NCBI GenBank assembly: GCA_001648575.1
Contig: LQXN01000067.1
Location: 372,001 to 436,000 of the forward strand
Reading direction: 5' to 3'
Length of the DNA stretch: 64,000 bases
From: Sutcliffiella horikoshii DSM 8719
GTDB lineage: Bacteria > Bacillota > Bacilli > Bacillales > Bacillaceae_I
Shown here: positions 17,551-61,459 of the stretch, piece by piece
Layout of the letters: every line of letters begins with the position of its first letter
How positions within the stretch are numbered: position 1 is the stretch's first letter
The notes under the pieces: generated by a model
What the model saw: the letters and a program-made list of their open reading frames with translations, nothing else
Databases searched by the model: none
What the model was told of the DNA's origin: nothing
Translations under genes and position numbers: made by a program

Positions 17551-17818
17551 AAGCCCGCTATAATTAGCGGGCTTCAGACTGTTGACAAAGCCCTAAATAT
17601 TTTTAAATTTGCATCCTGCTATTGATCTTCGTTCCAGGCGCTTCGCTTTTCGCGGGCGGTCCGGAAGCCTCCTCGGGCTTACGCCCTGCGGGGTCTTCCA
17701 TGTCCCTTCCTCCCGCAGAAGTCTGCGCGCCTTCCACTACGATCAACACAGGTTTTGCATATCTCAAAGATAAAAAAACTTTGTCTACACACTGAAGCCC
17801 GCTATTATTAGCGGGCTT
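17551..17818 (-). mobile_element. Repeat element A (220 bp) flanked by duplicated terminator hairpins
   Basis: The element core is 17575-17794. On the minus strand it begins CAGTGTGTAGACAAAG and ends CTTTGTCAACAGTCTG, giving short inverted ends TGTWGACAAAG. The centre is GC-rich (about 60%) and bounded by inverted GTTGATC / GATCAA(T/C) blocks. The 24-base terminator hairpin (AAGCCCGC ... GCGGGCTT) stands on both sides, 17551-17574 and 17795-17818, differing at one base. Only the right copy keeps the T run. No coding potential. Confidence 0.85.
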
Positions 17819-17821
17819 TTT

Positions 17822-18751
17822 TTATTCCATTTCAGAAGTACGCTCATGATCTCCGATTAGGTCTGGATCAAGTATTTCATAGTTTTTTGCTTGAAGGCCT
17901 TTTACAATATCGGCTAAGGCATCCTTGGTCCATTCTCTATCATGCATGAGGAGGTTGCTGCCACTGCTTAGCAGTTCCGTATTGACCATGATGTCTGCAA
18001 GAGCCTCCGCATCCATATATTCATTTTCCCAATCATATCCATAAGTCCAATTCATCAATATCATTCCTTCTTGCTTGACAAGGTCTGTGGCATAATCAGT
18101 ATTTGTACCAAAAGGTGCACGGAAGAATCGTGGACGCTCTCCCGTTATTTCCTCCACTCTATCGCTTAAGGAAACAATCTCCTCATACTGTTCATCCTCG
18201 GTCAGCTGCCTTAAAGACTTATGTGTCATTGTATGGTTTCCGATAGGAAATCCCATATCATAAATTTCTTTAAGTGTGTTGCGTTCTTGTTCCGTTTCCA
18301 AGAAGTGGCTATTAACAAAAAATATGGCTTTCACGTTCAGTTCTTTAAGGATAGTTGCCATCTCAAGGGCATACCTATCAGGAGCATCATCAATTGTCAG
18401 CAATACTACATTGGGATTTATGGCACTGCTCAGAGGATCAATCGACTCTATTGTCCAATTACTCTCGTTCACTATGTATTGCGGTTCTTGAGAATCTTCG
18501 TTACTGGAATTCGGGTTATCATCCTCTCCCCCGCCATCCTCAGGTTTATCTTCCCCAGGTTCTTGTTCTTCAACAGGTTCTTCTGTTGATGCCGGCACTT
18601 CTTCCTCATCAACTACTTTATCATCAGAGGGTTCATTTTTTTGTGTTTGACCATCAGCCGCATCAGATCCTTGCTCTTCATTTACTTGTCCAGTTTCCCC
18701 GCAAGCTACAAGGAGGAGCAGTAATAATGCAGATAGTATCCATTTTTTCAT
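17822..18751 (-). CDS. Polysaccharide deacetylase lipoprotein
   Basis: Predicted surface lipoprotein of 309 residues with a signal peptide and lipobox (LLLLLVACGETG). A low-complexity linker rich in D, E, S and P follows (about 25-100), then a NodB deacetylase domain with the metal/catalytic motifs TIDDAPD (motif 1), NHTMTH (motif 2, H-x3-H) and FRAPFG (motif 3). Probably removes acetyl groups from cell-wall glycans; the substrate is not determinable. GGAGG upstream of ATG 18751 selects this start. Located between element A and an untranslated stretch without recognisable features. Confidence 0.87.
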   Translation of the reverse strand: MKKWILSALLLLLLVACGETGQVNEEQGSDAADGQTQKNEPSDDKVVDEEEVPASTEEPVEEQEPGEDKPEDGGGEDDNPNSSNEDSQEPQYIVNESNWTIESIDPLSSAINPNVVLLTIDDAPDRYALEMATILKELNVKAIFFVNSHFLETEQERNTLKEIYDMGFPIGNHTMTHKSLRQLTEDEQYEEIVSLSDRVEEITGERPRFFRAPFGTNTDYATDLVKQEGMILMNWTYGYDWENEYMDAEALADIMVNTELLSSGSNLLMHDREWTKDALADIVKGLQAKNYEILDPDLIGDHERTSEME

Positions 18752-19032
18752 CTTCTTTCCTCCATATGTAAGGTTCATCTTTAATCATACTAGCAACCAC
18801 TATATGAAGGCAATGTTTTTCCTGCATTTTGAATTTTATAGTAATGCTCTTTTCTATAAAATTGTTGCTAACTACTAGCAAAAATTAGGTGATTGGACTT
18901 GCTGTCCTTATACATACTCTATACGGTAACAAAGTGAAAAGAGCACGACAGTAAGGAATATTTAAGCAACAAAGGTTAAGAAGACAGCCTATATCAATGT
19001 TTATTCATTAATAATGTATATTTAACTTACAA

Positions 19033-19278
19033 CTAGCCAAAGACAAAATAGTAAAATAGGCTCTGAAAACTAAAATAAAAAACAAAACTTATGGCAGTAG
19101 TCAATGCTGCTTGTTTTTTCTTATGAATAATCGACATGGCTAGTGTATAACAAAGATAGATAAAAATACCTAATAGGATGATTTTTGCTTGCATTTTGTC
19201 TCTGGCAGAAAACCATTCGATCAGACTATACGTGCCCCAGAAGATATTTTGTATTAAAAAGACCACATAATTTTTCAT
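19033..19278 (-). CDS. Small membrane protein, unknown
   Basis: An 81-residue protein with three hydrophobic segments (about 3-20, 31-50 and 56-80) and a basic turn (HKKKQ). AAGGAG eight bases upstream of the ATG supports expression. I recognise no family. Nothing else is seen in the 281-base gap before the deacetylase gene. Confidence 0.65.
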   Translation of the reverse strand: MKNYVVFLIQNIFWGTYSLIEWFSARDKMQAKIILLGIFIYLCYTLAMSIIHKKKQAALTTAISFVFYFSFQSLFYYFVFG

Positions 19279-19507
19279 AAAAGCAGCTCCTTACTGCATA
19301 TTTCTATTTATGTATCCGATTTTCCCATAAAGAAAACCTTTGTAATAAATATGCTGTGTAGGAGCTTTCTATTTTTCAATTTTGTAACATTTCGATGACA
19401 AGCAAGGGTTGCATTGTTTTTAGTGGTAGAATAGCACCATTAGTAAAACAACTTTTTGATAGCTTTATAGACCATATAGATGTTTCATATAGAAAGTGAG
19501 GATTGCC

Positions 19508-19900
19508 ATGATTAGAGGCTCTGTCATCTTTTTTACTTTGTCTTTTTTCATTTTATCTTCTTGCCAAGAAAACCAAACGATTACTCACATTCAATTTCCG
19601 GATGATGCCCATACACTTGTTTTTTTCTCCGATGAAGCCAACTTACAGGATGAACATACATACTATGATGCTATCATCGACTTGAGAAATACATTCCCTG
19701 ATGAAGTGGCTAACTTAAAAGTGGTCCACTCAGAGAACGAAAAGAATTTATACAAGCAGTTCAATGTTAAATCTACACCTTCTTTAATTGTTGTCCATCA
19801 TAATGAAGTAGTAACCCAGGTGGAAGGCTCTAAGCCAAAAGAAGATATTGTCGTTTCGATTGAACAGGCTCTTCATAATGCAGGTGAATCCACTAATTAA
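19508..19900 (+). CDS. slp: Small peptidoglycan-associated lipoprotein Slp, thioredoxin-like
   Basis: A 130-residue lipoprotein (lipobox ILSSCQ, cysteine about residue 17) with a thioredoxin-like body (TLVFFSDEANLQDEHTYYDA ... FNVKSTPSLIVVH) that lacks the CxxC active site, so it is not a disulfide oxidoreductase. Position between speA and pdhD and the DEHTYYDAIIDL segment match B. subtilis slp. GAGG six bases before ATG 19508 selects the start over the GTG at 19496. Role in the envelope unknown. Confidence 0.82.
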   Translation: MIRGSVIFFTLSFFILSSCQENQTITHIQFPDDAHTLVFFSDEANLQDEHTYYDAIIDLRNTFPDEVANLKVVHSENEKNLYKQFNVKSTPSLIVVHHNEVVTQVEGSKPKEDIVVSIEQALHNAGESTN

Positions 19901-19933
19901 AGTGTGATTGCCTGCTTTTTTTATCGCAACATG

Positions 19934-19964
19934 AAAGAGCCTCCGATATTTTCGGAGGCTCTTT
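19934..19964. terminator. Bidirectional terminator of slp and the pdh operon
   Basis: Stem AAAGAGCCTCCGA / TCGGAGGCTCTTT; works in both directions. Confidence 0.9.
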
Positions 19965-19974
19965 AAGTAATGAT

Positions 19975-21387
19975 TTATTTAACAATATGAATCGGGCTTC
20001 CCATGGCAACTTCCGCAGCTTCCATTGTGATTTCTCCCAATGTTGGGTGTGCGTGGATAGTCATGGCGATATCTTCAGCTGTCATTCCAGCTTCGATAGC
20101 TAGTCCAAGTTCAGCGATCATGTCAGATGCACTGGAACCGGCAATTTGAGCACCGATGATCAATCCATCTTCTTTACGAGTTACAAGCTTTAAGAATCCG
20201 TCTGTTGCGTTCAATGCCAATGCACGGCCGTTCGCAGCAAATGGGAATTTAGCAGCTGTTACTTCAATTCCTTCTTCTTTTGCTTGTGCTTCTGTGTAAC
20301 CGACAGATGCAAGTTCCGGTTCTGAGAATACTACTGCAGGAATACCTAAGTAGTCAATCTCACTAGGCTCACCAGCAATTGCTTCTGCAGCAATCTTACC
20401 TTCGTAAGATGCTTTATGTGCAAGCGGTGGTCCATCAACGATATCACCAATCGCGTAGATGTTAGAAACGCTAGTGCGGCACTGCTTGTCAATTTTGACA
20501 ACGCCACGATCTGTCATTTCTACACCTACTTGCTCAAGGCCAAGCTCATCTGTGTTAGGACGGCGACCAACAGTAACCAATACATAATCAGCGTCGATTG
20601 TTTGCTCCTCGCCTTTTACTTCAATGGTAACTTTCACACCGTCTTCAGTTTCTTCTACACCTTTTGCCATCGCTTTTGTGAAGATTTCTACGTTACCTTT
20701 TTTCTTTAGGTTACGTTTAACAAGAGAGCTCATTTGCTTTTCGAATCCAGCCAAGATCTCGTCTGCTGCTTCCACAATGACAACTTCTGTTCCAAAGTTT
20801 GCATAAGCTGTACCTAGCTCAGTACCGATGTAACCTCCGCCAATAACAACTAGTTTCTTTGGAATGTCTTTAAGTGCCAATGCACCTGTAGAGTCAAGAA
20901 CACGTTTAGAGTACTTGAAAGTCGGGATTTCGATTGGGCGAGAACCTGTTGCAATGATACAGTTATTGAACTTGTAAGTTTGCGCAGAGTTATCATCCAT
21001 GATACGAACTGTGTTACCGTCTACGAAGTATGCTTCCCCAGAAACGATGTCTACTTTATTCCCCTTAAGTAGACCTTCTACTCCGCCAGTCAATTTCTTC
21101 ACAACTCCAGCTTTCCATTCTTGAACTTTTGAGAAATCCACTGTTACATTCTCAGCTTTGATTCCCATGTCTTCAGAATGTTGAGCTGTTTCAAAGCGGT
21201 GACCTGCAGAAATTAACGCCTTAGAAGGGATACATCCAACATTTAGACATACTCCGCCAAGTGTGTTCTTTTCTACGATTGTTACCTTTTGTCCCAGTTG
21301 AGCAGCGCGGATTGCAGCAACATATCCGCCAGGGCCCGAACCGATGACAAGCGTATCTACATCAATTGCGAAATCTCCTACTACCAT
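19975..21387 (-). CDS. pdhD: Dihydrolipoamide dehydrogenase (E3)
   Basis: FAD flavoprotein of 470 residues that reoxidises the lipoyl arm of E2 in pyruvate dehydrogenase, passing electrons to NAD. It shows the FAD-binding [17 protein letters not shown], the redox disulfide [15 protein letters not shown] (about residues 45-60), the NAD-binding [10 protein letters not shown] and the C-terminal catalytic HAHPTLGE. The stop of pdhC is only a few bases upstream, so the two are co-translated. Last gene of the pdhABCD operon. Confidence 0.98.
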
Positions 21388-21390
21388 TTA

Positions 21391-22752
21391 TTAACCCTCC
21401 ATTAACATTAATTGTGGATCGTTCAATAGGCGCTTGATATGGTTAAGCGCATTTTGAGCAGTAGCGCCATCAATCATACGATGGTCAAAGCTTAGTGATA
21501 ATGCAAGAACTGGAGCCACTACAATTTCTCCGTCTTTCACTACAGGTTTTTCTGCGATACGGCCGATACCTAGAATCGCAACCTCAGGATGGTTAATTAC
21601 CGGTGTGAACCATTGTCCGCCAGCAGATCCGATGTTAGTGATAGTGCAAGAAGCACCTTTCATTTCATCAGACGCCAATTTACCGTCACGTGCTTTTCCA
21701 GCAAGTTCGTTGATTTCGTTGGAAATAGAGAAGATCGACTTTCTGTCTGCATCTTTCACAACAGGAACCAATAAACCTTTTTCTGTATCAGCAGCTATTC
21801 CGATGTTGTAATAGTGCTTGTGGACAATTTCATCTGTTGCATCATCAAGAGATGTATTAAGTACAGGATACTCACGTAACGCAGATGTAAGTGCTTTAAC
21901 TACGTATGGTAAGAATGTTAACTTAATACCTTTGTCTGCTGCAACTGATTTGAATTTCTTACGGTGTGCAACAAGCTCTGTCACATCGATCTCATCCATC
22001 AATGTTACGTGAGGTGCAGTGTGCTTGGAGTTAACCATCGCTTTTGCGATCGCACGGCGCATACCACTCATTTTCTCACGAGTCTCTGGGTAAAGACCCG
22101 CTGGAATTGCTTGTTTTTCTTGTTTTGCTTCAGCTTTTTCTTCTTTTGCCGCAGGAGCTGCTTCTGTAGTAGTTTCTTCAGCTTTAGCGCCGCCTCCGCT
22201 TAAGAATGCGTCGATGTCGCTTTTTAGAACACGCCCGTTGTCCCCGGAACCGGATACTTGACGGATTTCTACGCCTTTTTCACGAGCATATTTACGTACA
22301 GATGGCATCGCGATTACACGTTTGTTCGTATCTACTTCTACTTGCTCTTGAGCGCCTGCGCCTGTTTCAACATCAGGCTCATCTTTTTGAGTTTCTTCTT
22401 TCTTCACATCTTGACCAGCTTCAGCAGTTGACTGAACTTGTCCTTCTGTTTTTTCATCAGCTGTTTCTTCGTCACTACCGTGGTCGTCTCCCTTGAACTT
22501 AAGGTCTTCATAACCAGGAGCATCAAGTGTGATGATGGTTTGTCCAACAGTTGCCACTGTCCCTTCATCCACTTTTAATTCCGTAACTTTTCCTTTTACA
22601 GGAGATGGAATTTCAACGACTGCTTTATCATTTTGTACTTCACAAAGTACATCATCTTCTTCGATTTCGTCACCTGGTTTCACGAACCACTTTACGATTT
22701 CACCTTCATGGATACCTTCACCGATATCTGGCAGTTTAAATTCGAATGCCAC
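21391..22752 (-). CDS. pdhC: Pyruvate dehydrogenase E2, dihydrolipoamide acetyltransferase
   Basis: Core of the complex, 453 residues. One lipoyl domain with the modified lysine in [12 protein letters not shown] (about residue 42), an acidic/Q-rich linker, the E1/E3-binding domain ([15 protein letters not shown]), an Ala/Lys/Glu linker, and the acetyltransferase domain ending in the catalytic [13 protein letters not shown]. Start is GTG at 22752, nine bases after AGGAGG; a TTG three codons earlier is too close. Unusually, almost 300 bases separate it from pdhB, and that gap holds a degenerate repeat core. Confidence 0.97.
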
Positions 22753-22803
22753 TGTATTCAACCTCCTATGATAGATAGCTTTTTAAGGAATCTGTTTACG
22801 TCT

Positions 22804-22927
22804 GTAGATTTCCGTTCCAGGTGTTCGCTTATCCTTAGGTCGGTGCTTGATCCTCCTCACAACGCTTCAGGGGTCTCAACCTACCGGTGCCTCCCACAGG
22901 AGTCTCACACCTTGCACTACAATCTAC
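22804..22927 (-). repeat. Degenerate repeat core F within the pdh operon
   Basis: A 124-base segment bounded by GTAGAT and ATCTAC. On the minus strand it is clearly related to the centre of elements A-D (shared blocks include TGCAAGG-GAGACTCCTG, GAGACCCC, GAGGAGG, AAGCGAACACCTGGAACG). It lacks the TGTWGACAAAG ends and the flanking hairpins. It would fold into one long stem in the message between pdhB and pdhC. Confidence 0.7.
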
Positions 22928-23047
22928 AGGGAAATTAATCAAACGAGATACCTGATTTTCTTTTTGCTTATAAAATGGAGAGCCCACTCTTGGCTAGGCG
23001 AAGAATGGACTTCCGTATGGTAGTTCAAGCTGCGAACTAGTTATATA

Positions 23048-24025
23048 TTAGAAGTTCAGAACTTTTTTAGCTGTTTCCAGAACGTCTTTATGATTTGGCA
23101 ACCACACGCTCTCAGCTTGAGAGAATGGGAATACTGTATCAGGAGCAGTAACGCGCAATACCGGCGCTTCTAAGCTAAGAATTGCACGGTCATTTATTTC
23201 TGCTACGATACTTGCACCGATACCTGCTTGTTTTTGCGCTTCTTGAACCACCATCGCACGGCCTGTTTTTTCAACAGATGCAATAATTGTTTCAATATCT
23301 AACGGGCTGATTGTACGTATGTCGATCACTTCAGCAGAAACGCCGTCTTTTTCAAGCTGCTCAGCTGCTTTCAAACACTCATGAACCATTGCTCCATAAG
23401 TGATCATTGTGATGTCGGAACCTTCACGTTTAACATCTGCTTTACCGATTTCGATAGTATATTCTTCTTCTGGTACTTCTTGACGGAAAGAACGGTATAA
23501 TTTCATGTGCTCCAAGAAAACAACAGGGTCGTTATCACGGATTGCAGAAATCAAAAGACCTTTCGCATCATACGGAGTTGCAGGAATTACCACTTTAAGA
23601 CCTGGTTGTTGTGCCATAAGTCCTTCTAAGCTGTCTGCATGAAGTTCAGGTGTATGAACTCCACCACCGAATGGAGAACGGATTGTCACTGGAGAATGCC
23701 AGCGTCCACCTGTACGGTAACGCATACGAGCCAGCTGTCCACTAACAGAGTCCATTACTTCGTATACGAAACCGAAGAATTGGATTTCCATTACAGGACG
23801 GAATCCAGTTACGCCAAAGCCGACAGCAAGTCCACCGATCCCTGATTCTGCAAGTGGCGTGTCAAAAACGCGGTCTTCTCCGAATTCAGCTTGAAGTCCT
23901 TCAGTTGCACGGAAAACCCCACCATTTTGACCAACGTCTTCACCGAACAGCAAGACGTTTTCGTCATTTTTCAATTCTGTGCGTAACGCATCAGTGATTG
24001 CTTGAATCATAGTCATTTGCGCCAT
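23048..24025 (-). CDS. pdhB: Pyruvate dehydrogenase E1 beta subunit
   Basis: A 325-residue transketolase-like subunit that forms the ThDP-dependent E1 with PdhA and decarboxylates pyruvate. Typical segments are [35 protein letters not shown] and the C-terminal [20 protein letters not shown] at 24025 lies four bases after the pdhA stop; the AAGGAG site is inside the end of pdhA, so translation is coupled. Confidence 0.98.
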
Positions 24026-24028
24026 GGC

Positions 24029-25144
<1,116 letters not shown>

Positions 25145-25818
25145 CTACGTCACCTCTTCCTTTCTATTAAGAGAACTATTTAATACATCATTACATACAA
25201 AAATAGGTTACCCAAAAACGTGTTTTAAAAGACATTTTTCTGTTTGTGATGCAAAAACGTATCTTTCCTCTTTTAGTGCTTGCCGAAATAGTACGGACAA
25301 GCAAAAAGAATCATCCTGTATTAATGTTTCCATGAAAAATATTAATACAACTTTTCACCCAGGTCAAGTTTACAACAATCGCAATAATTCCGTCAATCTG
25401 TTTGCTTAAGCTGAATTTATTTTCCATAAAATTGAAAAGCCATCACATAAACCAAGCACTGTACTAATACAATTAAGATTACTGTATTATAAAAAGCAAT
25501 AATTTATACTTTCTCATTATCTTATAATAATATTCTAACGCTATTTATCCCTTTCCCGCTATCAACTGATCTTAACCATCTTTGCTTATTTGGCTATAGC
25601 AGCATAAAAATGTGATGGTGATTAACCTGGTTGTTAGAAGTTGTTATCCTAAAATTTGTTTTGTTGCTTTTATGTCTTTTAAAACCATCCTAACTTTCGT
25701 GTTTTCCTTGAAATAGTCAATCTATTCTTGTGATTTTTTAGAGATTTTACAAAACATACTTCGAGAAAAGACCCTTGTTATAAAACAATGTTTTAAATTT
25801 TAGTATTACAGAAAACAA
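25145..25818. other. Long AT-rich intergenic region upstream of pdhA
   Basis: About 670 bases without a supported gene. It contains the candidate pdh promoter. No open frame with a ribosome site, no riboswitch-like fold and no cre site of good quality was seen by eye. Confidence 0.5.
25339..25367 (-). promoter_or_regulatory. Candidate SigA promoter of pdhABCD
   Basis: Minus-strand TTGACC (25367-25362), a 17-base spacer and TAATAT (25344-25339). The -35 is good and the -10 matches at four of six. The leader would be about 190 bases. Confidence 0.5.
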
Positions 25819-25850
25819 AATCCATAGAAGGGTGAACGCTTCTATGGATT
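25819..25850 (-). terminator. ykyA terminator
   Basis: Twelve-base stem AATCCATAGAAG / CTTCTATGGATT followed by TTTTGTTTT on the minus strand. Confidence 0.85.
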
Positions 25851-25864
25851 CCGAATATTAATAT

Positions 25865-26530
25865 TTAGTTGTTATAAGAAACATCAAGCCCAGCCTTTTT
25901 ATAAAATTCTAGTTTTGCTTCATTGTATTCCCCGGTAAAGGCATTGAAGGAATCATTTGCTTCATTGATTTTTTCATATTTTTCGTTCAAATTATTAATT
26001 TGCATTTGTAATTCTTCAAGTGTAAGGTCTTCGGTTTGAAACAACTCATACATGTCCTTTTCGATCACCATAGATTCTTTATAATGATTCCATAACGTCA
26101 TATATGCTTCATAACGCTGCTCCATAAGCTGATACAAGGCTTGAGCCTCTTTCTTTAGCTCATCATCTTCCAAAGACTCCATAGCCGCCTTCACTTCCAC
26201 AAACTCTTCCCGTGCCGCCTCAATGCTCTTTTTCTCCTCTTCCATTGCGGCTTCCTTTTGTTCTACTAAGCCCAATCCTTCTTGTGAAAGCTTGACAATC
26301 TGATCAAACTCTTTCATTCCAAGGCTTAAGATCTCTTCGTAAATGGCAGATTCCTTTTTTTCCAACTCTAACAAAGGTTCTTGTTGTTCTTCAAAGCTAG
26401 CTTCAAGTTCGACTACCTTTTCCAACGTCTGAAAAATCTCCTGTTCTGGAGAATCACCATTCGTACATCCAGTCAAAAACAATGAAAAAGCTAAAGCCCC
26501 GGAACATAATGTTCTATTCCACAAACGCAA
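25865..26530 (-). CDS. ykyA: YkyA family lipoprotein, coiled coil
   Basis: A 221-residue predicted lipoprotein (lipobox LFLTGC) followed by an almost wholly alpha-helical, Glu/Lys-rich coiled-coil body. It corresponds to YkyA by position between pdhA and the deformylase gene and by fold pattern. Function unknown. The frame opens with an ATG at 26548, but GGGGGG lies seven bases before TTG 26530, which gives the cleaner signal peptide (LRLWNRTLCSGALAFSLFL). Divergent from def. Confidence 0.8.
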   Translation of the reverse strand: MRLWNRTLCSGALAFSLFLTGCTNGDSPEQEIFQTLEKVVELEASFEEQQEPLLELEKKESAIYEEILSLGMKEFDQIVKLSQEGLGLVEQKEAAMEEEKKSIEAAREEFVEVKAAMESLEDDELKKEAQALYQLMEQRYEAYMTLWNHYKESMVIEKDMYELFQTEDLTLEELQMQINNLNEKYEKINEANDSFNAFTGEYNEAKLEFYKKAGLDVSYNN

Positions 26531-26713
26531 TTTAAATCCCCCCAACATTTCTTCTCTATTAACTATAAATTTTATTGCTAATTTTTACAATATCTTTGAT
26601 GAATTGTTTTATTTAGATTTTCACTTTTGTTAAAATATTTCATGATTCATAATAGCTAACATGTATACTTATGTATAGAGTATATTATATGTATAAAGGA
26701 TAGGAGTGAAGAA

Positions 26714-27268: not shown

Positions 27269-27274
27269 TAAAAA

Positions 27275-27302: not shown

Positions 27303-27373
27303 TATTATTGTTCTTGATATATTTCAGGTATTCATTTCCCTCTGTGCATTTGCTGCTTTTTGATATATAACGC

Positions 27374-52180: not shown

Positions 52181-52193
52181 TTATACATTCCTG

Positions 52194-52424: not shown

Positions 52425-52489
52425 TCTTTTCACCTCTCCGAGCAATCTATACTCTTAAGGTAAACAAACAAATAATTTCTATTCGTTCT

Positions 52490-53707: not shown

Positions 53708-53799
53708 CTTTTTTCTCCCCTTTGCCTTTGTTTGGAATGATTATACCACGGCAGAAGAGTAATAAGACAAGATTTTAGGGCAAATGCAATTCGTAAAAA

Positions 53800-54372
53800 T
53801 TAATAGAGTCTCTTCGGTATTTTTAACGATTGCCCGATTTTCAGGCAATCTGTACTCAGGCTGTTCATTTTCCTGATAGCTTCACGGGATATATCATACC
53901 TTTGAGCAATTTTTATAATGCTGTCAGATGTTACAACTGTATGAAGATAACACGGTATTTTCAAGTCCATTCCGGCAAATACTGTGTCTCCTTCCAAATG
54001 ATTTGCCTTCTTGAGGCAAGTTTCATTAATGGATAGCTTTTGCGCTATATCTTCAAGGGTTTCATTTGACTGGATTTTATAAACTGCATGTGCGGGACCT
54101 TCTATCAGTTCCCTTCCAGCTCCATTTTTTTCATCTAAAACTGCAACAAGGAACTGTTGGAATTTTATACGATAACTCTCTACAGCTGTACCCTTGGGTA
54201 GTACTTGCATGGCATATTTTCTGGCTGATTCCAATAAATTTTTTCTTTTTGATATATGTTGTTCTCTGCTGTCATATTCCACTGCGAATTCATAAAAAGC
54301 TTCTGTCGGATTGATGAAAACCGTTAACTCTTTGTTGGTTTCATCCCATTCATACTTATAAAAGATGCTCAC
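53800..54372 (-). CDS. Double-LysM protein
   Basis: A 190-residue protein with two C-terminal LysM domains (AVYKIQSNETLEDIAQKLSI, TVVTSDSIIKIAQRYDISRE) and an unrecognised N-terminal domain (SIFYKYEWDETNKELTVFIN). No signal peptide, so binding of peptidoglycan would be intracellular or in the spore, as for SpoVID/SafA-type proteins. GTG at 54372, seven bases after AGGAGG, is the clear start. Takes the position of ykuG/ykuH. Confidence 0.75.
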   Translation of the reverse strand: MSIFYKYEWDETNKELTVFINPTEAFYEFAVEYDSREQHISKRKNLLESARKYAMQVLPKGTAVESYRIKFQQFLVAVLDEKNGAGRELIEGPAHAVYKIQSNETLEDIAQKLSINETCLKKANHLEGDTVFAGMDLKIPCYLHTVVTSDSIIKIAQRYDISREAIRKMNSLSTDCLKIGQSLKIPKRLY

Positions 54373-54429
54373 TGGTTTTCCTCCTTTTTGCTTAGTATGG
54401 ACAAAAACTGTGGGCAAGTATGAAAAAAA

Positions 54430-54461
54430 CGCATGGAAGCATTTTTCAATGCTTCCATGCG
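54430..54461 (-). terminator. fadH terminator
   Basis: Perfect 14-base stem CGCATGGAAGCATT / AATGCTTCCATGCG followed by a T run on the minus strand. Confidence 0.92.
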
Positions 54462-54468
54462 CAAGGAT

Positions 54469-55233
54469 TTAAAACGGGAATGGTTGAAGCCATTGACCTC
54501 CATCCATAGTGATACATTCCCCATTTATGTAAGCTGCTTTGTCTGAACTTATGAAAAATGCCAGTTCCGCAATCTCTTCAGGAGTACCAAACCGCTTCAA
54601 CGGCACGCTATCTGCAACTTTTTTCGCTTCCTCCTCAGACTGCATTAGCTTGTCTGCTCCACCTGTCCTCTCGATCGGGCCGGGTGCTATTGCATTTACT
54701 CGAATCCCATATTTTGTACCCCATTCCACGGCGAGTGTCCTTGTCAGGGAAAGAACACCAGCTTTAGCTGCAGCGGAATGTACCACTCCTGCACCTGCAT
54801 TCCAAGCGTAGGTTGCAACCATATTGATCATACTGCCTTTTTCATTTCGTGCCATCCAGTATTTACCCACTGCAGAACTGCAGTAAAATGTCCCATTCAG
54901 AACAATATCTATGACCGACTTCCATCCGTTTACTGAAAGCTTTTCCGCAGGACAGATAAAGTTCCCTGCTGCATTATTTACAAGAACGTCAATTCTTCCA
55001 AACTTCTCATCCGTGAGTTTGACCATATGCTCGGCATGATCTGGTTCTCTAACATCCATTTGAATAGTCAAAACTTGCCCTTCTGAACACTGGATTTCTT
55101 CCTTGGCTTTGGCGAGCCGGTCCAGGTCCCTGCCAGTGATGACAACATTATAACCTTCTTTCGCAAATTTCATAGCCATATATTTCCCCATTCCACTTGA
55201 ACCGCCGGTGATAATGACGACTTTGTTTTCCAT
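54469..55233 (-). CDS. fadH: 2,4-dienoyl-CoA reductase (SDR family)
   Basis: A 254-residue short-chain dehydrogenase for beta-oxidation of unsaturated fatty acids (YkuF in B. subtilis). NADP-binding ITGGSSGMGKYMA, NNAAGNFICPAE, and a catalytic region in which the usual Tyr is replaced: NMVATYAWNAGAGVVHSAAA KAG places Lys but not the normal YxxxK. That is normal for dienoyl-CoA reductases. GGGGGAG before the ATG. Divergent from ykuE. Confidence 0.9.
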   Translation of the reverse strand: MENKVVIITGGSSGMGKYMAMKFAKEGYNVVITGRDLDRLAKAKEEIQCSEGQVLTIQMDVREPDHAEHMVKLTDEKFGRIDVLVNNAAGNFICPAEKLSVNGWKSVIDIVLNGTFYCSSAVGKYWMARNEKGSMINMVATYAWNAGAGVVHSAAAKAGVLSLTRTLAVEWGTKYGIRVNAIAPGPIERTGGADKLMQSEEEAKKVADSVPLKRFGTPEEIAELAFFISSDKAAYINGECITMDGGQWLQPFPF

Positions 55234-55440
55234 ATGAAATTCTCCCCCAATCCTATGTCTCTATATTATTTTAACCTAATATTCATAATTATTAAAATGT
55301 TTTATGTCACCCATTCTAAATATTTACCAACAAAAGTAGATAGTAAGAATGAGAAATTTCAATGGAAATGGTGCTATAATGAGTATGCATTTACAACAGT
55401 TGGAGTAGACAATCAATAAATTAGAGATAGGTTGATTATA

Positions 55441-56301
55441 TTGGCTAAGGTAACAAGACGAGGCTTTTTCAAACGAATATTCATACTAGCCTTCACAGCT
55501 CTTCTGACAAGTGGAGCAGGCTATTATTATGCAAGATACATTGAACCCAAACAAATAAAAATATTAAAACATACCATCAAACACCCAGCCATCCCAGAAA
55601 GTTTTTCCGGTATAAAAATTGCTCAATTTTCTGATACTCATATCGGCCATCACTTCAATAAAGCCGATCTGGAGAAAGTCATTCGCAAAATAAATGAAGA
55701 GGAACCTGACATCGTCGTTTTTACAGGAGATTTAATGGACAACCCACTGGAATATGACAGCTCTTATAACCTTATTGGAATATTGAGCAAGGTCAAGGCC
55801 CCTTTAGGAAAGTTTGCAATCTTCGGGAACCATGATCATGGGGGATATGGGACAGAGACCTATGAAGAAATCATGGAAGAATCAGATTTCACTGTATTAA
55901 AGAATGAAAATACATTTGTGGAGATAATTGATGGCAGCAGAATCTATATTGCCGGTGTGGATGATTTAATGCTTGGCAGACCCGATTTCCGTGAAACCCT
56001 TAAGGGCATTCCAGATGAGGCATATACCATTTTGTTGGCACATGAGGGGGATGCGGCTGATTCCATTGCCGAACAGTTCCATGTTAACCTACAATTATCC
56101 GGGCATTCACATGGTGGACAGGTTCAACTACCATTCATAGGACCTCTTATCACCCCTCCTCTTGGTTCCAAATTTTTTGAGGGATTTTATCAACTGGACG
56201 ATTTGACCCTTTACGTGAATAAAGGACTCGGAACGACCAGACAGCCATACCGCTTTTTGGCACCTCCTGAAATCAGCTTTTTCACTTTAGAAAAGGAATA
56301 G
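55441..56301 (+). CDS. ykuE: Tat-exported metallophosphoesterase YkuE
   Basis: A 286-residue calcineurin-like phosphoesterase with a twin-arginine signal (TRRGFFKRIFILAFTALLTS). Metal motifs FSDTHIGHH, VFTGDLMDN, FGNHDHGG and SGHSHGG are complete. B. subtilis YkuE is a Tat substrate bound to the wall. TTG at 55441 (AGG nine bases upstream) is preferred over TTG 55432, which touches the site. tatAy/tatCy are not in the window. Confidence 0.93.
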   Translation: MAKVTRRGFFKRIFILAFTALLTSGAGYYYARYIEPKQIKILKHTIKHPAIPESFSGIKIAQFSDTHIGHHFNKADLEKVIRKINEEEPDIVVFTGDLMDNPLEYDSSYNLIGILSKVKAPLGKFAIFGNHDHGGYGTETYEEIMEESDFTVLKNENTFVEIIDGSRIYIAGVDDLMLGRPDFRETLKGIPDEAYTILLAHEGDAADSIAEQFHVNLQLSGHSHGGQVQLPFIGPLITPPLGSKFFEGFYQLDDLTLYVNKGLGTTRQPYRFLAPPEISFFTLEKE

Positions 56302-56355
56302 GAGATTCATTTCAACGGTTTTTTCTAATTTATTTGGGCTACCCGGTACAAGCGC

Positions 56356-56381
56356 ACAGCTTTCCTTATTCCCATACATTA
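56356..56381 (+). promoter_or_regulatory. SigK-like promoter candidate
   Basis: AC (56356) and, after 15 bases, CATA-CAT-TA (56373-56381), matching the mother-cell SigK consensus AC / CATANNNTA. It lies about 20 bases upstream of the ribosome site of the Pro/Tyr-rich gene. A short consensus, so chance is possible. Confidence 0.45.
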
Positions 56382-56412
56382 TAGGGACACTATAAAGGAG
56401 GCGTATGTCTTG

Positions 56413-56580
56413 ATGAATCGTAATTTCCCACAAAATAGATTTATAGGAGGATTTGGCTTTCCTTTCTTTCCATTTTTAGGTGGATTGGCAGTCGGTTCCC
56501 TGTTAGCGCCAAGGCCCATTTACTACCCACCATACCCCTATTATGCACCGTATCCGCCATATCCTTATTATTATAGATAA
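56413..56580 (+). CDS. Pro/Tyr-rich small protein, possible spore coat component
   Basis: A 55-residue protein: MNRNFPQNRFIGGFGFPFFP, a short hydrophobic Gly/Leu stretch, then a tail made of PYP/YYP repeats. AAAGGAGG lies eight bases before an in-frame TTG (56410) and 11 before the ATG (56413); either may start. Pro/Tyr-rich tails of this kind occur in coat and crust proteins of Bacillus spores. The SigK-like promoter and ykuD next door support this. No family recognised. Confidence 0.7.
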   Translation: MNRNFPQNRFIGGFGFPFFPFLGGLAVGSLLAPRPIYYPPYPYYAPYPPYPYYYR

Positions 56581-56663
56581 TGGTGACACGGTAAGAATAG
56601 CCGCTGCATCAAGTGCAACGGCTTTTTGTCTCGCTTTACATTAAAATAAAGGTGGTGATATAG

Positions 56664-57164
56664 ATGGCCATCCATATCGTAAAACCTGGGGAAACATTGA
56701 ACTTGATTGCCATGGATTACCGCAAGACCTTAGCAGAGATCTTAGCTGCTAACCGTATATCGAATCCAAATATCATCGTACCCGGACAGCGTATTATTAT
56801 CCCCGGCATACCTGATGCGGAAACCATTCCCTACACAATAGAAATTTCCATAGCAAATAAAAGGTTAGTATTGAAGGATAAAGGTGTAGTCATAAAAACT
56901 TATCCTATTGCGGTTGGAAGAATGTTATACAATACCCCAATCGGAGATTTTATCATTGTTAATCGTCAACCGAATCCAGGTGGACCATTTGGGGTGATGT
57001 GGCTATCACTCTCCAAGTTATCCTATGGCATTCATGGCACGAATGATCCGAGTTCTATAGGAAAAGCCGTATCAAAGGGTTGCGTGCGCATGTTCAATCG
57101 AGATGTATTGGAGCTCTCATCCATCGTCCCTAATGGAACGCGTGTTTTTATACGACCACAATAG
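56664..57164 (+). CDS. ykuD: L,D-transpeptidase YkuD
   Basis: A 166-residue enzyme that makes or edits 3-3 cross-links or anchors in peptidoglycan. N-terminal LysM ([20 protein letters not shown]) and a C-terminal YkuD domain with the catalytic IHGTND and SKGCVRMFN (Cys about residue 145). No signal peptide, as in the B. subtilis protein, which is made during sporulation. AAAGGTGG precedes the ATG. Confidence 0.95.
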
Positions 57165-57249
57165 TTTACGCGAATATCAGCATAATAGTAGCTCCCCTTC
57201 CATTTTTTACGAAGGAACAGTATAATAAGGAAAAGGAAAGGAGCCTACT

Positions 57250-57732
57250 ATGCATAATCAAAGCTATACGAATCAAAGAAAACACGATTCCTCCATTGAA
57301 TCTTCTATTGAAAACCTCTCACGTGCCATTTTCACTGTAAATCGGCATGCCAAAACCGCGCCAGACCCAAAGTTTCTCTATACTTTAAAAAGAAAAGCCC
57401 TAGAGAAACTTATTACTGAGGGAAAAGCTACAAAAAAAGGATTACATTTTTCAAGAAATCCCAAAAATAGCAGACAGCAATCTGACGTGCTCGTATCTGC
57501 AGGAGACTATTATTTTCATCTTCCTCCTACTAAGGAGGACTTTACAGAATTGCAGCACCTTGGGGAGCTAAACGACCATTACCGCAATCCAAAGGCAAAT
57601 ATGTCATTGTCAGTGGCTAAGAATTTACTCCAAAGGTATACAAACTTCTACCCTACGGACGGAAAAAAGCAACCTGCAAAAAAACAGTATCAGAAACCCG
57701 TATTCAAAAAACTAGGAGAAAGCTACTTATAA
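57250..57732 (+). CDS. ykyB: YkyB-like protein
   Basis: A 160-residue basic protein of the YkyB-like family (NLSRAIFTVNRHAKTAPDPK ... YTLKRKALEKLI). Function unknown. AAAGGAG eight bases upstream of the ATG. It sits between ykuD and cheV, as ykyB does in B. subtilis. Its terminator is split by repeat element B. Confidence 0.88.
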   Translation: MHNQSYTNQRKHDSSIESSIENLSRAIFTVNRHAKTAPDPKFLYTLKRKALEKLITEGKATKKGLHFSRNPKNSRQQSDVLVSAGDYYFHLPPTKEDFTELQHLGELNDHYRNPKANMSLSVAKNLLQRYTNFYPTDGKKQPAKKQYQKPVFKKLGESYL

Positions 57733-57740
57733 TTAAAGAA

Positions 57741-58023
57741 CAAGGAGTCCAATCAAACGATTGGGCTCCTTGCAGTGTGTAGACAAAGTTATTTTATCTT
57801 TGAGATATGCAATAACAAGTTGATCGTAGTGGAAGGCGCGCAGACTTCTGCGGGAGGAAGGGACAGGGAAGACCCCGCAGGGCGTAAGCCCGAGGAGGCT
57901 TCCGGACCGCCCGCGAAAAGCGAAGCGCCTGGAACGAAGATCAACAGCAGGATGCAAATTTAAAAATATTTAGGGCTTTGTCAACAGTCTGCAAGGAGTC
58001 CAATCAAACGATTGGGCTCCTTG
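57741..58023 (+). mobile_element. Repeat element B (219 bp) flanked by duplicated terminator hairpins
   Basis: Element 57773-57991 begins CAGTGTGTAGACAAAG and ends CTTTGTCAACAGTCTG. The 32-base hairpin (CAAGGAGTCC ... GGGCTCCTTG) is present, identical, at 57741-57772 and 57992-58023. The core is nearly identical to A and D. It lies between converging ykyB and cheV, so it interrupts their shared terminator. A minus-strand frame inside reads Arg/Ser-rich protein but has no start signals. Confidence 0.87.
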
Positions 58024-58029
58024 TTATGT

Positions 58030-58926
58030 TTAGAATAGTTTCGAGTCAATCAAATCTATCAACTTTGTAAGTTGTGGTTTGCTGATCTGCGCATCCGCAC
58101 CAACCTGCTCCCCTTTATGTCTTAAATGATCTGTAATCAATGAGGAAAAAATAATGACCGGCATACCACTTAGAAAGCTGTCACTTTTGATTTTTTTAGT
58201 AAGGTGATGGCCATCCATTTGGGGCATCTCAATGTCTGTGATCAGAAGGTCTACCTGTTCTTGACCATTTTTCACTTCTGTCACCATATACTCCCATGCT
58301 TCCTTCCCATTTTCAAAGAAAAGAGTATGTTCAAAACCTGCAGCTTGTAATGTTTCCTCCAAAAGCTTTCTGAGCATAAAAGAATCTTCCGCTACCAGGA
58401 TTTTTTTATCCCTTCTTTCAGGTTTCACATTCTTGTCCATTCGGGCAGCCTCTTTATCTAGGTTGGGAAAAATATCAAACATGATTTTTTCCACATCCAC
58501 AAGGAGAATCATCTTTGATTCCTGCTTGATCACACCGGTGATATGATCTTCGAATCCCTGTTGGAACGAAGCTGGTTTCTCCATATCCGACCAAGAAACC
58601 CGATGAATTTGAGTAACATGATCCACCTTCAATATAACTTTCATCCCATTAAATTCTGAAACAATGAATTTCTGTTCCGGGTATTGGCATTTATCCTCAA
58701 TCTCTAGAGCTCTTCTTAAATGAATGACAGGAAGAACTTCCCCCCTAAGTTCCAGAACCCCCTCCACATTTGCATGAGAATGCGGAATTTTAGTAACAGC
58801 TACAGGCTTAATGATCTCCCTTACCTTGAGAACATTTATTCCAAAACTGGTTTCACCTAGTAAGAACTCCAAAAATTCAACCTCATTAGTTCCTGAATCC
58901 AACAATATTCCACTTTTATTTTCCAA
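58030..58926 (-). CDS. cheV: Chemotaxis coupling protein CheV
   Basis: A 298-residue fusion of a CheW-like coupling domain (about 13-160; EFLLGETSFGINVLKVREII) and a response-regulator receiver domain (about 175-298; KILVAEDSFMLRKLLEE). The phosphorylated Asp is D231 in LLITDIEMPQMDG; the Lys of the receiver is in ISKPQL. It couples receptors to CheA and helps adaptation. TTG at 58926 with GGAAGGG about ten bases upstream. Position beside ykyB as in B. subtilis. Confidence 0.95.
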   Translation of the reverse strand: MENKSGILLDSGTNEVEFLEFLLGETSFGINVLKVREIIKPVAVTKIPHSHANVEGVLELRGEVLPVIHLRRALEIEDKCQYPEQKFIVSEFNGMKVILKVDHVTQIHRVSWSDMEKPASFQQGFEDHITGVIKQESKMILLVDVEKIMFDIFPNLDKEAARMDKNVKPERRDKKILVAEDSFMLRKLLEETLQAAGFEHTLFFENGKEAWEYMVTEVKNGQEQVDLLITDIEMPQMDGHHLTKKIKSDSFLSGMPVIIFSSLITDHLRHKGEQVGADAQISKPQLTKLIDLIDSKLF

Positions 58927-59005
58927 AATTAATACGCCCTTCCATCCTTAACTAGATGTTGCTCTATAATTTTTATCGGAAAATAAGTGAACTTGTTGAG
59001 ACTCT

Positions 59006-60817
59006 TCAAGAAAAGCTTTTCTCCAATTCATCAACCAATGACCCAACATAGGCTACAGCTGTCTTGATTGGCTCAGGAGACGTCATATCCACACCAGCCA
59101 ATTGCATCAGTTCTAATGGCTTTAACGTACCTCCTGCTTTCAAAGCAGAAAGCCAACGGTCGACTGCCGGCTGTCCTTCCTCTTGAATCAGCTTAGCAGC
59201 AGCTGTGGAAGCTGTCAGGCCCGCTGAATACGTGTATGGATATAGGCCCATATAATAATGAGGCTGACGCATCCAAGTCAAGCCTGCTCCTTCATCCAAT
59301 TCAACTGCATCACCCCAGAAATCAGCTAGCAAAGCAGTTTTCTGTTCACATAGGACATTGGCAGTGATTGGGGTTCCCTTGCCGGCAAGCTCATACACCC
59401 GACGTTGAAGTTCCCCCTCCAAAATATGAGTTACAAAATTATGATAATACGTACCAAGTGATTGTAAGATTACCCAACGACGCATTCTTTCTTCATTCGG
59501 CTTAGCAAGGATATGGTGACTTAGTAACATTTCGTTCATAGTGGAAGGTGCTTCGACAAAATATCTGGATGGACGTGTATTGGAAATTCTTTGGTATCGA
59601 CCTGCCAATCGGAAATGCCCTGCATGGCCTAATTCATGAGCAAGTGTATAGGCATTTCTCATGGAGTCACTCCAGGTCATAAGGATGTATGGATGAACTC
59701 CATAAGGGCTGGAACAAAATGCACCGGACCCCTTTCCAATATTATCCGCCAAGTCAATCCAACGGTTATTCAGCCCCTCTTCCATGATTTCCAGATACTC
59801 CGGACCCATCACTTCCAAAGATTCCAAAATAAGCTTAGATGCTTCATCATAAGTAATTTCAGGATTGAAGTCAGGATCAAGTGGAGCCTTCAAATCACAA
59901 AACTTCATATTCTCAAGGCCTAGTACCTTCTGCTTCAGTTTAGCAAACCTGCGCATATGGGGGGCTAACTCTTGTTGAATGATATCTAATTGATTATGAT
60001 ACATTTCTTTTGTCACTTGCTGATCATGAAGAAGCATATCGGTAACTGAATCATAGTTACGTAATTTAGCCTCCACAACCTGTTTTTTCACTTCTGTTGC
60101 ATAGGTTGCAGCATAAGTATGCTTATATTGTTTAAGAGTCTCAATATAGGATTGATATGCCTTCCTGCGAAGTTCTGTATTTGAAGACCCCTCATAGTTA
60201 GGAAAAGAGTTGAAAGATAAAGGATGCTCTTGACCATCTTCTGTTGTGAAGGACGAAAATCTCATATCTGAGATTAAGCTTCTTTGATAAATCATATATG
60301 GAGCATTGTGTACCTCACCAAATGCGGAAAGAACTTCTTCTGCGTCAGGTGACAGTTTATGAGGCTTAGTCTCCAATACATCCAACAAAGTTTTTTGGAA
60401 CTCTTTCAGTTCAGGCTCATGTTCTATGTAATTTAAAATCGCTTCCTCGTTTAATTGTAGAATTTCAGATTGAACAAAAGAAATTTGTGTACTGAATTGA
60501 GATAACATCCCACCGACTCTTGTTGAATTCGCCTGGTTTTCAGGGTTTGTCCCATCCTCAGATTGCTTTAATGAAGCATATGTCATCACTCTAGCAACTC
60601 TTTCAGTTAACTCATCCTTATCCTTTAGGCAGTCAAGGAGTGTTCTCGCATTAGCAACCACCCTTCCTTTATAACGCGTTACCTTTGAAAGGTCCATCTG
60701 AACGGCAGCAAGCTCCTGTTCCCAATCTTCTTTAGACTTAAATAAATCTTCTAAATTCCAGGTCATTTCCAATGGTACATCTTCTCTGTTACTTGCTCTT
60801 TTCAATAATTGCGCCAT
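59006..60817 (-). CDS. pepF: Oligoendopeptidase F
   Basis: Cytoplasmic M3-family zinc metallopeptidase of 603 residues that cleaves short peptides. Zinc motif AHELGHAGHF (HExxH) at about residue 390 with the downstream glutamate in YFVEAPSTMNEM. N-terminal helical lobe from EMTWNLEDLFKSKEDWEQEL. Its position between cheV and tre is not the B. subtilis arrangement. GGAGGGG before the ATG. No clear terminator directly after it. Confidence 0.95.
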   Translation of the reverse strand: MAQLLKRASNREDVPLEMTWNLEDLFKSKEDWEQELAAVQMDLSKVTRYKGRVVANARTLLDCLKDKDELTERVARVMTYASLKQSEDGTNPENQANSTRVGGMLSQFSTQISFVQSEILQLNEEAILNYIEHEPELKEFQKTLLDVLETKPHKLSPDAEEVLSAFGEVHNAPYMIYQRSLISDMRFSSFTTEDGQEHPLSFNSFPNYEGSSNTELRRKAYQSYIETLKQYKHTYAATYATEVKKQVVEAKLRNYDSVTDMLLHDQQVTKEMYHNQLDIIQQELAPHMRRFAKLKQKVLGLENMKFCDLKAPLDPDFNPEITYDEASKLILESLEVMGPEYLEIMEEGLNNRWIDLADNIGKGSGAFCSSPYGVHPYILMTWSDSMRNAYTLAHELGHAGHFRLAGRYQRISNTRPSRYFVEAPSTMNEMLLSHHILAKPNEERMRRWVILQSLGTYYHNFVTHILEGELQRRVYELAGKGTPITANVLCEQKTALLADFWGDAVELDEGAGLTWMRQPHYYMGLYPYTYSAGLTASTAAAKLIQEEGQPAVDRWLSALKAGGTLKPLELMQLAGVDMTSPEPIKTAVAYVGSLVDELEKSFS

Positions 60818-60950
60818 TATGTCCCCTCCATTTATTTCGTATTTCGAATTATTAAATTCTATTATAATCTAAATGAGTCGTTATTTGTAGGTATTTTTAG
60901 AAAATTATAATTATTAATTGTTGTTCAAACTATATTCAGATTACAAATTA

Positions 60951-61459
60951 AGCCACTCCCATTAGTAGGGAGTGGCTCAGTGTGTAGACAAAGTTATTTT
61001 CGAATGATAAATTCCTGGTTGATCGTAGTGGAAGGAGCGTAGACTCCTGCGGGAGGAAGGGACAGGTAAGACCCCGCAACGAAGTGAGGAGGCTTACGGA
61101 CCGCCCGCTGGAAAGCGAAGCTCCTGTAACGGAGATCAACCGTTCCAACAGATAACCTAACTAAATTTTAGTTTGTCTACGGTCTGAGCCACTCCCATTA
61201 GTAGGGAGTGGCTATATGTGTAAACAAAGTCTTAAATCTATAGGAATATGCAATACCCATGTTGATCGTAGTGGCAGGCGCGCAGACTTCTGCGGGAGGA
61301 AGGGACAGGGAAGACCCCGCAGGGCGTAAGCCCGAGGAGGCTTCCGGACCGCCCGCGAAAAGCGAAGCGCCTGGAACGAAGATCAACAGCAGGATGCAAT
61401 TTTAAAATTTTTAGGGCTTTGTCAACAGTCTGAGCCACTCCCATTAGTAGGGAGTGGCT
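60951..61459 (+). mobile_element. Tandem repeat elements C and D with three terminator hairpins
   Basis: Hairpin copies of 27 bases (AGCCACTCCC ... GGGAGTGGCT), all identical, lie at 60951-60977, 61187-61213 and 61433-61459. Between them are element C (60978-61186, 209 bp) and element D (61214-61432, 219 bp) in the same orientation. D is nearly identical to A and B; C belongs with E to a second subfamily (arm AGATAACCTAACTAAA). The array lies between treR and pepF, at the end of the trehalose operon. Confidence 0.88.

What the first reader, a model, noticed from the sequence alone, without database searches (positions are those of the whole stretch)
17551..61459. A family of mobile-looking elements that duplicates whole transcription terminators
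Elements A (17.6 kb), B (57.8 kb), C and D (61 kb) share inverted ends TGTWGACAAAG and a GC-rich core bounded by GTTGATC/GATCAAC. Each is flanked by direct copies of a terminator hairpin. The hairpin differs between loci (24, 32 and 27 bp), so it belongs to the target rather than the element. The duplicated segment equals the hairpin each time and leaves out the T tract. Ordinary target duplications are short and of fixed length. Variable duplications that exactly match a hairpin suggest cutting at the base of a cruciform or single-stranded hairpin, or copying through an RNA 3' end. Similar cores recur in my memory of other Bacillaceae genomes, but I know of no described terminator-duplicating mechanism.
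Basis: partly seen in the sequence, partly recalled or inferred. Interest (0 to 1): 0.9.

Follow-up and report, generated by a model that had tools for sequence, protein, structure and literature searches.

The report
Jumping genes that duplicate terminator hairpins
Small mobile DNA elements in a Bacillus relative, and the larger transposons they appear to come from, insert at DNA hairpins and leave one hairpin copy on each side, so the shape of the target rather than the enzyme seems to set the size of the duplication.

Summary
Elements A-D (209-220 bp) are miniature transposons with 16-bp ends CAGTGTGTAGACAAAG / CAGACTGTTGACAAAG. Of the 40 best copies in the host genome, 38 have matching flanks holding the same hairpin, against 0 of 1560 mismatched flank pairs. 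The likely parents are IS1182-family DDE transposons. Of 80 relatives' loci, 60 have direct repeats of 19-42 bp that are hairpins, centred exactly on the hairpin's dyad in 57 of 60. Three plasmid pairs with no flank mismatch show one hairpin when empty and two when occupied. I found no paper documenting it in the library I could search. Best model: strand transfer at the two 5' feet of an extruded cruciform, then fill-in. The hairpin is duplicated but most of its T-tract is not, so each copy keeps one side of the terminator. RNA copying is not supported. The GC-rich core also lies inside some parent transposons. New variant of a known kind.

The parts
17551..17574 (.). Target hairpin, left copy, element A (24 bp)
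   Evidence: 23 of 24 identical to the right copy
17575..17794 (-). Element A, 220-bp miniature transposon with 16-bp terminal inverted repeats
   Evidence: 96% identical to element B
17619..17748 (-). GC-rich structured core of A
   Evidence: nhmmer 135 bits
17795..17818 (.). Target hairpin, right copy, element A, followed by the rest of the T-tract
57741..57772 (.). Target hairpin, left copy, element B (32 bp)
   Evidence: a single hairpin at the orthologous site of G014, G008, G003
57773..57991 (+). Element B, 219-bp miniature transposon
57819..57948 (+). GC-rich structured core of B
   Evidence: nhmmer 137 bits; homologous cores lie inside 25 of 60 parent IS copies
57992..58023 (.). Target hairpin, right copy, element B
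   Evidence: 32 of 32 identical to the left copy
60951..60977 (.). Target hairpin, first of three copies at the C/D site (27 bp)
60978..61186 (+). Element C, 209-bp miniature transposon with divergent core
   Evidence: ends CAGTGTGTAGACAAAG and CAGACCGTAGACAAAC
61014..61144 (+). GC-rich structured core of C
   Evidence: nhmmer 144 bits
61187..61213 (.). Target hairpin, second copy, between C and D
61214..61432 (+). Element D, 219 bp, left end decayed (ATATGTGTAAACAAAG)
61259..61390 (+). GC-rich structured core of D
   Evidence: nhmmer 135 bits
61433..61459 (.). Target hairpin, third copy
   Evidence: one such terminator-like hairpin, by eye, at the site in L065, L066, L067

Best explanation
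Elements A-D are miniature, transposase-less derivatives (MITEs) of a clade of IS1182-family insertion sequences with 16-bp ends of the type CAGNNTGTNGACAAA. SHOWN: members of the clade sit at imperfect palindromes, mostly terminator-like hairpins; insertion adds the element plus exactly one more copy of the hairpin; the repeat varies (19-42 bp) with the hairpin and is centred on its dyad; arms share little sequence beyond an A-rich foot. INFERRED: the transposase recognises the folded palindrome (a cruciform, i.e. a four-way junction). [quoted passage not shown] Unfolding leaves hairpin-long gaps that repair fills in, giving one hairpin per side. IS1272, which removes hairpins, would be the 3'-foot alternative of the same reaction (the authors of PMC5678879 proposed that foot for IS1272). 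Because most of the T-tract (right) and A-tract (left) is not duplicated, each hairpin copy keeps one flank, so the far copy should still end transcription coming from either side. Duplicated hairpins are new targets, as in the C/D tandem.
For: Host genome 38 of 40 versus 0 of 1560 mismatched flank pairs; contig census 12 of 12 end pairs. Parents: decayed IS in the host genome with IS1182-type transposase, similar ends and a hairpin on both sides, the left copy with a deletion; intact 448-aa copy in G007 (S. horikoshii) with exact 30-bp hairpin copies. Eighty relatives: 60 with hairpin direct repeats of 19-42 bp, 58 exact, centre on the dyad in 57 of 60; of the other 20, 3 more have the same hairpin on both sides, 14 a hairpin at the one recognised end with enough flank, 3 differ between sides. 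Three before/after plasmid pairs with 0 mismatches, one hairpin becoming two. No strong motif in the arms; at most 3 A's inside the repeat although A-runs reach 6 outside it. Tract on one side only: right 12, left 7, so no clear orientation preference.
Against: No experiment; cruciform, ssDNA hairpin or paired-arm complexes cannot be told apart by sequence alone. 3 of 60 repeats are off-centre by 1-1.5 bp. I found no intact transposase with these ends in the host's 67-contig assembly. L193, L194, L197, L204 and L214 have different sequences on the two sides; I read this as recombination between copies, or misassembly for L194, without proof. In L137, L140, L171, L184 and L186 one end was not recognised although the contig continues. 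The 80 loci are the best of 461 found by similarity to one transposase, and 12 come from one genome (Bacillus sp. OV166). The structure model was too poor to use (pLDDT 52).
Confidence: 0.72

Rival explanations
1. The transposase acts on ordinary duplex DNA as a flexible dimer, each half reading one arm of an inverted repeat by sequence, so that spacing varies.
For: Repeats are exactly symmetric about the dyad in 57 of 60, as a dimer would also give; there is an A-rich preference at the cut.
Against: Apart from the A-rich foot the arms share no strong sequence preference. A rule that demands only that the arms be complementary is hard to read without pairing them. Repeat lengths run from 19 to 42 bp.
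Confidence: 0.12
2. The target is a hairpin on single-stranded DNA, for example at the lagging strand of a replication fork, and the copy arises during replication.
For: Short stems with small loops, 3-10 nt (the range my finder allowed), would form on single strands.
Against: A repeat made by staggered attack needs both strands; exact two-strand symmetry fits a cruciform better. Replication-strand bias was not tested (67 contigs).
Confidence: 0.13
3. Copying through the RNA 3' end of a terminator, or transcription-coupled insertion.
For: 52 of 58 exact target hairpins have an A- or T-tract on at least one side, as terminators do.
Against: The parent elements encode a DDE transposase; 6 of 58 hairpins lack a tract; at most 3 T's of the tract lie inside the repeat; one-sided tracts show no clear orientation preference (12 versus 7).
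Confidence: 0.02
4. The hairpins belong to the element, or pre-existed as two copies.
For: None found.
Against: Hairpins differ between sites; empty sites have one.
Confidence: 0.01

Closest known systems
IS1272 and composite transposon TnSha1 (IS1182 family, staphylococci); PMC5678879 (abstract, sections 21-24, part 1 of 2 of the Discussion and passages read) and PMC4923244 (passages read)
   Same: Same transposase family; 16-bp ends; target is a hairpin recognised by shape, often a terminator, without shared sequence
   Different: They delete the hairpin, wholly or in part, and leave no duplication; the ISSau3-type ends seen here differ (AGGCTGGGACATAA type, L211); separate clade in the tree
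Hypothetical 'pathway b' in Fig. 13 of PMC5678879 (legend and text read)
   Different: Given there as a model alternative; the passages I read cite no element for it. Here the outcome is seen in many genomes with exact empty sites
ISEfa7-type elements (Enterococcus faecium)
   Same: L217 shares ends (CAGACTGTAGACAAAG type) and length (1536 bp) with the ISEfa7-annotated L204 and carries exact 25-bp hairpin copies
   Different: A named relative; the paper search that used its name listed no paper containing it. L204 itself has two different hairpins
ISCfr1 and a Priestia megaterium IS (other IS1182 branches)
   Same: Annotated as IS1182-family transposases
   Different: Short repeats of 5-6 bp by my automatic end call, not hairpins
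REP-targeting IS elements and IS110/IS1111 (titles and abstracts seen; otherwise recalled)
   Same: Insert at palindromes or structured or specific sites
   Different: Recognise specific repeat sequences or use guide RNA; no variable whole-hairpin duplication known to me (recalled)

Membership tests
IS1182 family (parent elements) | Transposase of NCBIfam NF033551 above cut-off | tested here: met
   L050: 477.4 bits, cut-off 270; Pfam PF13751, PF05598, PF01609 above their cut-offs
IS1182 family (parent elements) | Single ORF with DDE motif, terminal inverted repeats of about 16 bp | tested here: met
   448-aa ORF in a 1513-bp element; invariant D149, D276, E403 in 18 relatives (reading them as the catalytic triad is inference)
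MITE of this clade (A-D) | Short, no transposase gene, ends matching an autonomous element | tested here: met
   209-220 bp; ends of the own-genome IS differ at 2-3 of 16 positions
MITE of this clade (A-D) | Target repeats of the same kind as the autonomous element | tested here: met
   Hairpin repeats in both
MITE of this clade (A-D) | Mobilised in trans by the clade's transposase | not testable with these tools
   Needs a transposition assay
IS1272 group | Replacement (loss) of the target hairpin, no target duplication | tested here: not met
   Hairpin gained, not lost: 1 copy empty, 2 copies occupied in 3 of 3 pairs of relatives
IS1272 group | Falls in the IS1272 clade | tested here: not met
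   Tree of 32 transposases chosen by me: 7 IS1272-type rows in one clade at 100/98, duplicating rows outside it (the program warned of long branches)
Conventional fixed-length target duplication | Constant repeat length | tested here: not met
   19-42 bp in 60 loci

The most novel reading that the evidence does not exclude
A DDE transposase clade that is a shape-specific strand-transfer enzyme for four-way junctions: the length of its target duplication is set by the target's secondary structure. The hairpin-duplicating and hairpin-deleting (IS1272) branches of IS1182 are then the 5'-foot and 3'-foot outcomes of one reaction. Some members also carry a conserved structured non-coding core near one end that their miniature derivatives keep and that may act in cis.
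Probability: 0.5. Interest if true: 0.78.

Novelty: new variant of a known kind. Interest (0 to 1): 0.63.

Why it matters
In textbook DDE transposition (recalled) the repeat has a fixed length because the enzyme sets the distance between its two cuts. Here the repeat varies more than twofold and matches a hairpin, which turns genome sequence into a record of DNA folding: each insertion would mark a palindrome that was extruded in a living cell. That makes cruciform extrusion at terminators testable in vivo. It also gives natural before/after pairs for biochemistry and suggests how such elements could reach high copy numbers with little harm, since the far hairpin copy keeps the terminator's tract. 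I found no paper in the searched library that documents whole-hairpin duplication (searches). Two reviews by Siguier and colleagues are not held, and ISfinder and TnPedia are out of reach of these tools, so prior notice there is possible.

Tried and rejected
The first protein alignment failed on a frameshifted row; that row and one other were dropped, leaving 18 of 20. Structure prediction gave mean pLDDT 52 and was not used for fold searches. No solved structure matches the transposase by sequence at E 0.001. Empty site of element A: none of the loci then compared covers it. Rfam at gathering thresholds found nothing over the elements. RNA copying, element-borne hairpins and chance were considered and rejected (see rivals). 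A strand-specific RNA role of the core could not be decided: G-T cells exceed A-C cells in a fold of either strand (49 to 19 and 91 to 40). In sister species many core copies lack recognisable ends: of 30 loci (2 from the host genome), 11 had ends within 4 mismatches in all, 10 of these with hairpin-length repeats by the ungapped rule; the 11th (L111, 19 of 28) looks to me like the same hairpin shifted by one base; the other 19 had none.

Limits: the genome search scored 40 of 280 core candidates, so the 40 copies are the best matches, not all copies; the 436-kb contig census is my check on that. There 31 core hits appear: 13 belong to the 12 end pairs plus D; one more (33404) has hairpins on both sides but decayed ends; the other 17 are weaker, old or have other ends. 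In one search partners were chosen partly by repeat score; one search repeats the census without that.
Full report
WHAT IS THERE. The four elements were read and their coordinates checked. Each intact end begins with CAG: CAGTGTGTAGACAAAG at one end and CAGACTGTTGACAAAG at the other (C has CAGACCGTAGACAAAC; D's left end is decayed). Between the ends lies a core of about 130 bases bounded by GTTGATC and GATCAAC. Outside the ends lie direct copies of a hairpin: 24 bp at A (one difference), 32 bp at B (identical), and three identical 27-bp copies around C and D. The C/D arrangement is what one expects if a second element landed on one of the two hairpins made by the first.

HOW GENERAL. The host assembly (4.68 Mb, 67 contigs) gave 45 matches to element B, with 40 of 280 first-look candidates scored. 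I took the 40 best; the five shorter matches are second elements beside them. Aligning 45 bases of left flank with 45 bases of right flank, 38 of 40 reach a local score of 14 or more, while none of 1560 mismatched pairs does (largest 13). The two failures (L034, L038) have lost one end. Stems of score 7 or more sit in 36 of 40 left and 36 of 40 right flanks, against 4.6% of 2000 random 45-mers of one contig. On 436 kb of contig C5, each end with at most one mismatch was paired with the nearest partner without using repeats: 12 of 12 pairs have flank scores of 20 to 32, while 2 of 3000 random pairs reach 14 and none more; five left and seven right ends stayed unpaired.

THE PARENTS. Own-genome hits to Pfam PF13751 include a decayed insertion sequence (L044, C4:393188-394685) whose ends CAGCTTGTAGACAAAG and CAGACCGTAGACAAAC differ from those of the small elements at 2-3 of 16 positions, and which lies between two copies of a hairpin, the left one with a deletion. 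A second, partial copy covers 917 of its 1498 bases. G007, of the same genus, holds an intact one: 1513 bp with a 448-aa transposase and an exact 30-bp hairpin on each side. Its contig (167860 bp) corresponds to a Sutcliffiella horikoshii plasmid of the same length, so I infer that the window lies in the genus Sutcliffiella. The protein scores 477 bits with the IS1182-family model (cut-off 270).

EIGHTY RELATIVES. The search for related loci returned the best 80 of 461 loci, 63-80% identical, in Bacillaceae and near kin. With an end-pair search that did not ask for palindromes, 60 of 80 have direct repeats of 15 bp or more, all between 19 and 42 bp, 58 of them exact. My finder placed a hairpin on each of the 60, and the centre of the repeat falls on the centre of that hairpin in 57 of 60; the other three are off by 1 or 1.5 bp. 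Of the remaining 20, three (L141, L174, L181) show the same hairpin on both sides when ends are sought with a fixed pattern (L141 over a longer stretch); 14 show a hairpin against the one end that is recognised with enough flank (nine at contig ends; in L137, L140, L171, L184 and L186 the other end was not recognised though the contig continues); three (L193, L194, L197) have different sequences on the two sides, with a hairpin on at least one. I saw no fixed short repeat in this group.

BEFORE AND AFTER. Three plasmid pairs give direct proof. For Enterococcus faecium (L217 occupied, L245 empty), Listeria (L215, L246) and an IncC plasmid (L206 in Klebsiella, L247 in E. coli), removing the element and one hairpin copy from the occupied sequence reproduces the empty sequence with 0 mismatches over 1580, 1574 and 1379 bases; the hairpin occurs once when empty and twice when occupied, at 25, 21 and 20 bp. 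In Sutcliffiella relatives I printed ten loci at the site of B: three (G014, G008, G003) carry one hairpin of similar sequence, six carry one hairpin of other sequence, and one (L075) a hairpin plus a core-like insert. At the C/D site I judged by eye that L065, L066 and L067 have one terminator-like hairpin next to the gene; eleven loci were printed and some hold other repeats.

WIDER FAMILY. I fetched 21 plasmid hits, chosen by me from three result lists. Ten have CAG-type ends: 8 with exact hairpin repeats of 20-30 bp (S. horikoshii, which is the G007 element again, S. arlettae, S. simulans, Macrococcoides, Listeria, Peribacillus, E. faecium, Klebsiella) and 2 (L204, L214) with two different hairpins; for L218, annotated ISEfa7, the ends were not found. 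Those with ends of the AGGCTGGGACATAA or a related type (L211, L222-L225), which group with ISSau3/IS1272, showed repeats of 0-5 bp. L219 and L221 could not be resolved and L220 gave 4 bp. ISCfr1 and a Priestia element gave 5-6 bp. These end calls are automatic. In a tree of 32 transposases the seven IS1272-type rows form one clade (100/98); 21 duplicating-type rows group at 93/96 with the Klebsiella row outside; the program warned about long branches. That L221 belongs to TnSha1 and that ISSau3 stands for IS1272 is my inference from the neighbouring fabI gene and the 548-aa length.

THE RULE OF THE CUT. Pooling both boundaries of 58 exact repeats, the base before the cut is A in 84% and the base after it A in 86%; positions +2 and +3 are mostly purines; position +4 is A in only 6% and C in 50%. 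The A-run at the start of the repeat is never longer than 3, nor the T-run at its end, while outside they reach 6 and 8. T- or A-tracts (5 in 8) lie on both sides in 33 sites, right only in 12, left only in 7, neither in 6. So the target is a palindrome, usually terminator-like, and most of the T-tract stays outside the repeat.

MECHANISM. Complementarity without sequence can hardly be read except by pairing, so the target is probably folded. Exact symmetry about the dyad says both strands are cut at equal distance from the loop, which fits the two 5' feet of a cruciform. This is the pathway that PMC5678879 drew as an alternative to the hairpin-removing reaction it proposed for IS1272. Steps shown: target is a hairpin; one copy gained; symmetry; variable length; transposase family. 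Steps inferred: extrusion, foot of attack, fill-in, action in trans on the small elements.

CONSEQUENCE. Because each copy keeps only one tract, transcription from the left should run through the element and stop at the right hairpin, and the reverse. Termination would be preserved while the element becomes part of 3' untranslated RNA (inference). IS1272 by contrast removes the hairpin. Five element pairs lie beside each other in the 45 matches, which suggests that duplicated hairpins are used again; I did not test this against a model.

THE CORE. Cores homologous to those of A-D lie inside 25 of the 60 parent copies, near one end, in all 25 with the GATCAAC edge facing the nearer end. Thirty-eight diverse cores fold into one long hairpin: 11 of 23 pairs with two-sided changes under default scoring, 23 of 41 under the ribosum option. 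The structure was predicted on the same alignment and no shuffle control was run. Lower-scoring cores occur with other ends. Its role is unknown; it is not needed for hairpin targeting, since 35 of the 60 copies had no core detected inside.

LITERATURE. Ten searches. Read: PMC5678879 (abstract, sections 21-24, part 1 of 2 of the Discussion, passages), PMC4923244 (passages), PMC10969869 and PMC3281130 (passages). Not held: two reviews by Siguier and colleagues. PMC5678879 says that their 2015 review mentions palindrome-targeting IS1182 members without detailed data.

Noticed in passing
window 17619-17748, 57819-57948, 61014-61144, 61259-61390: The GC-rich core is a conserved hairpin-forming module also found inside 25 of 60 parent transposons, oriented the same way relative to the nearer end in all 25; it could be a cis-acting DNA structure or an RNA.
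   Followed up: partly
L099, L118, L100, L114 and other loci: In sister species many core copies have no recognisable ends while the core itself stays conserved, as if kept for another reason or homogenised.
   Followed up: partly
L074, L069 and contig C5:341681-341809: Related cores occur between other ends (CCACTGAAAAAGT type), so the core seems shared by more than one miniature-element family.
   Followed up: no
G000 C5:353707-354163, C67:347833-348232, C63:12063-12417, C5:162724-163096; window 60951-61459: Elements sit side by side; at the C/D and C5:353707-354163 sites they share a hairpin in three copies, suggesting that duplicated hairpins attract further insertions.
   Followed up: partly
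window 16259-16483, minus strand: Rfam SR1 small RNA (RF02376), 53.6 bits.
   Followed up: no
L070, L071: By eye, the intergenic site orthologous to C/D holds a tandem array of a repeated unit in two relatives; L073 has a different array.
   Followed up: no
L045-L048 (own genome): A divergent IS1182-like transposase (451 aa, 262.8 bits, just below the family cut-off of 270) is intact in L045; three further fragments lie at contig ends.
   Followed up: no
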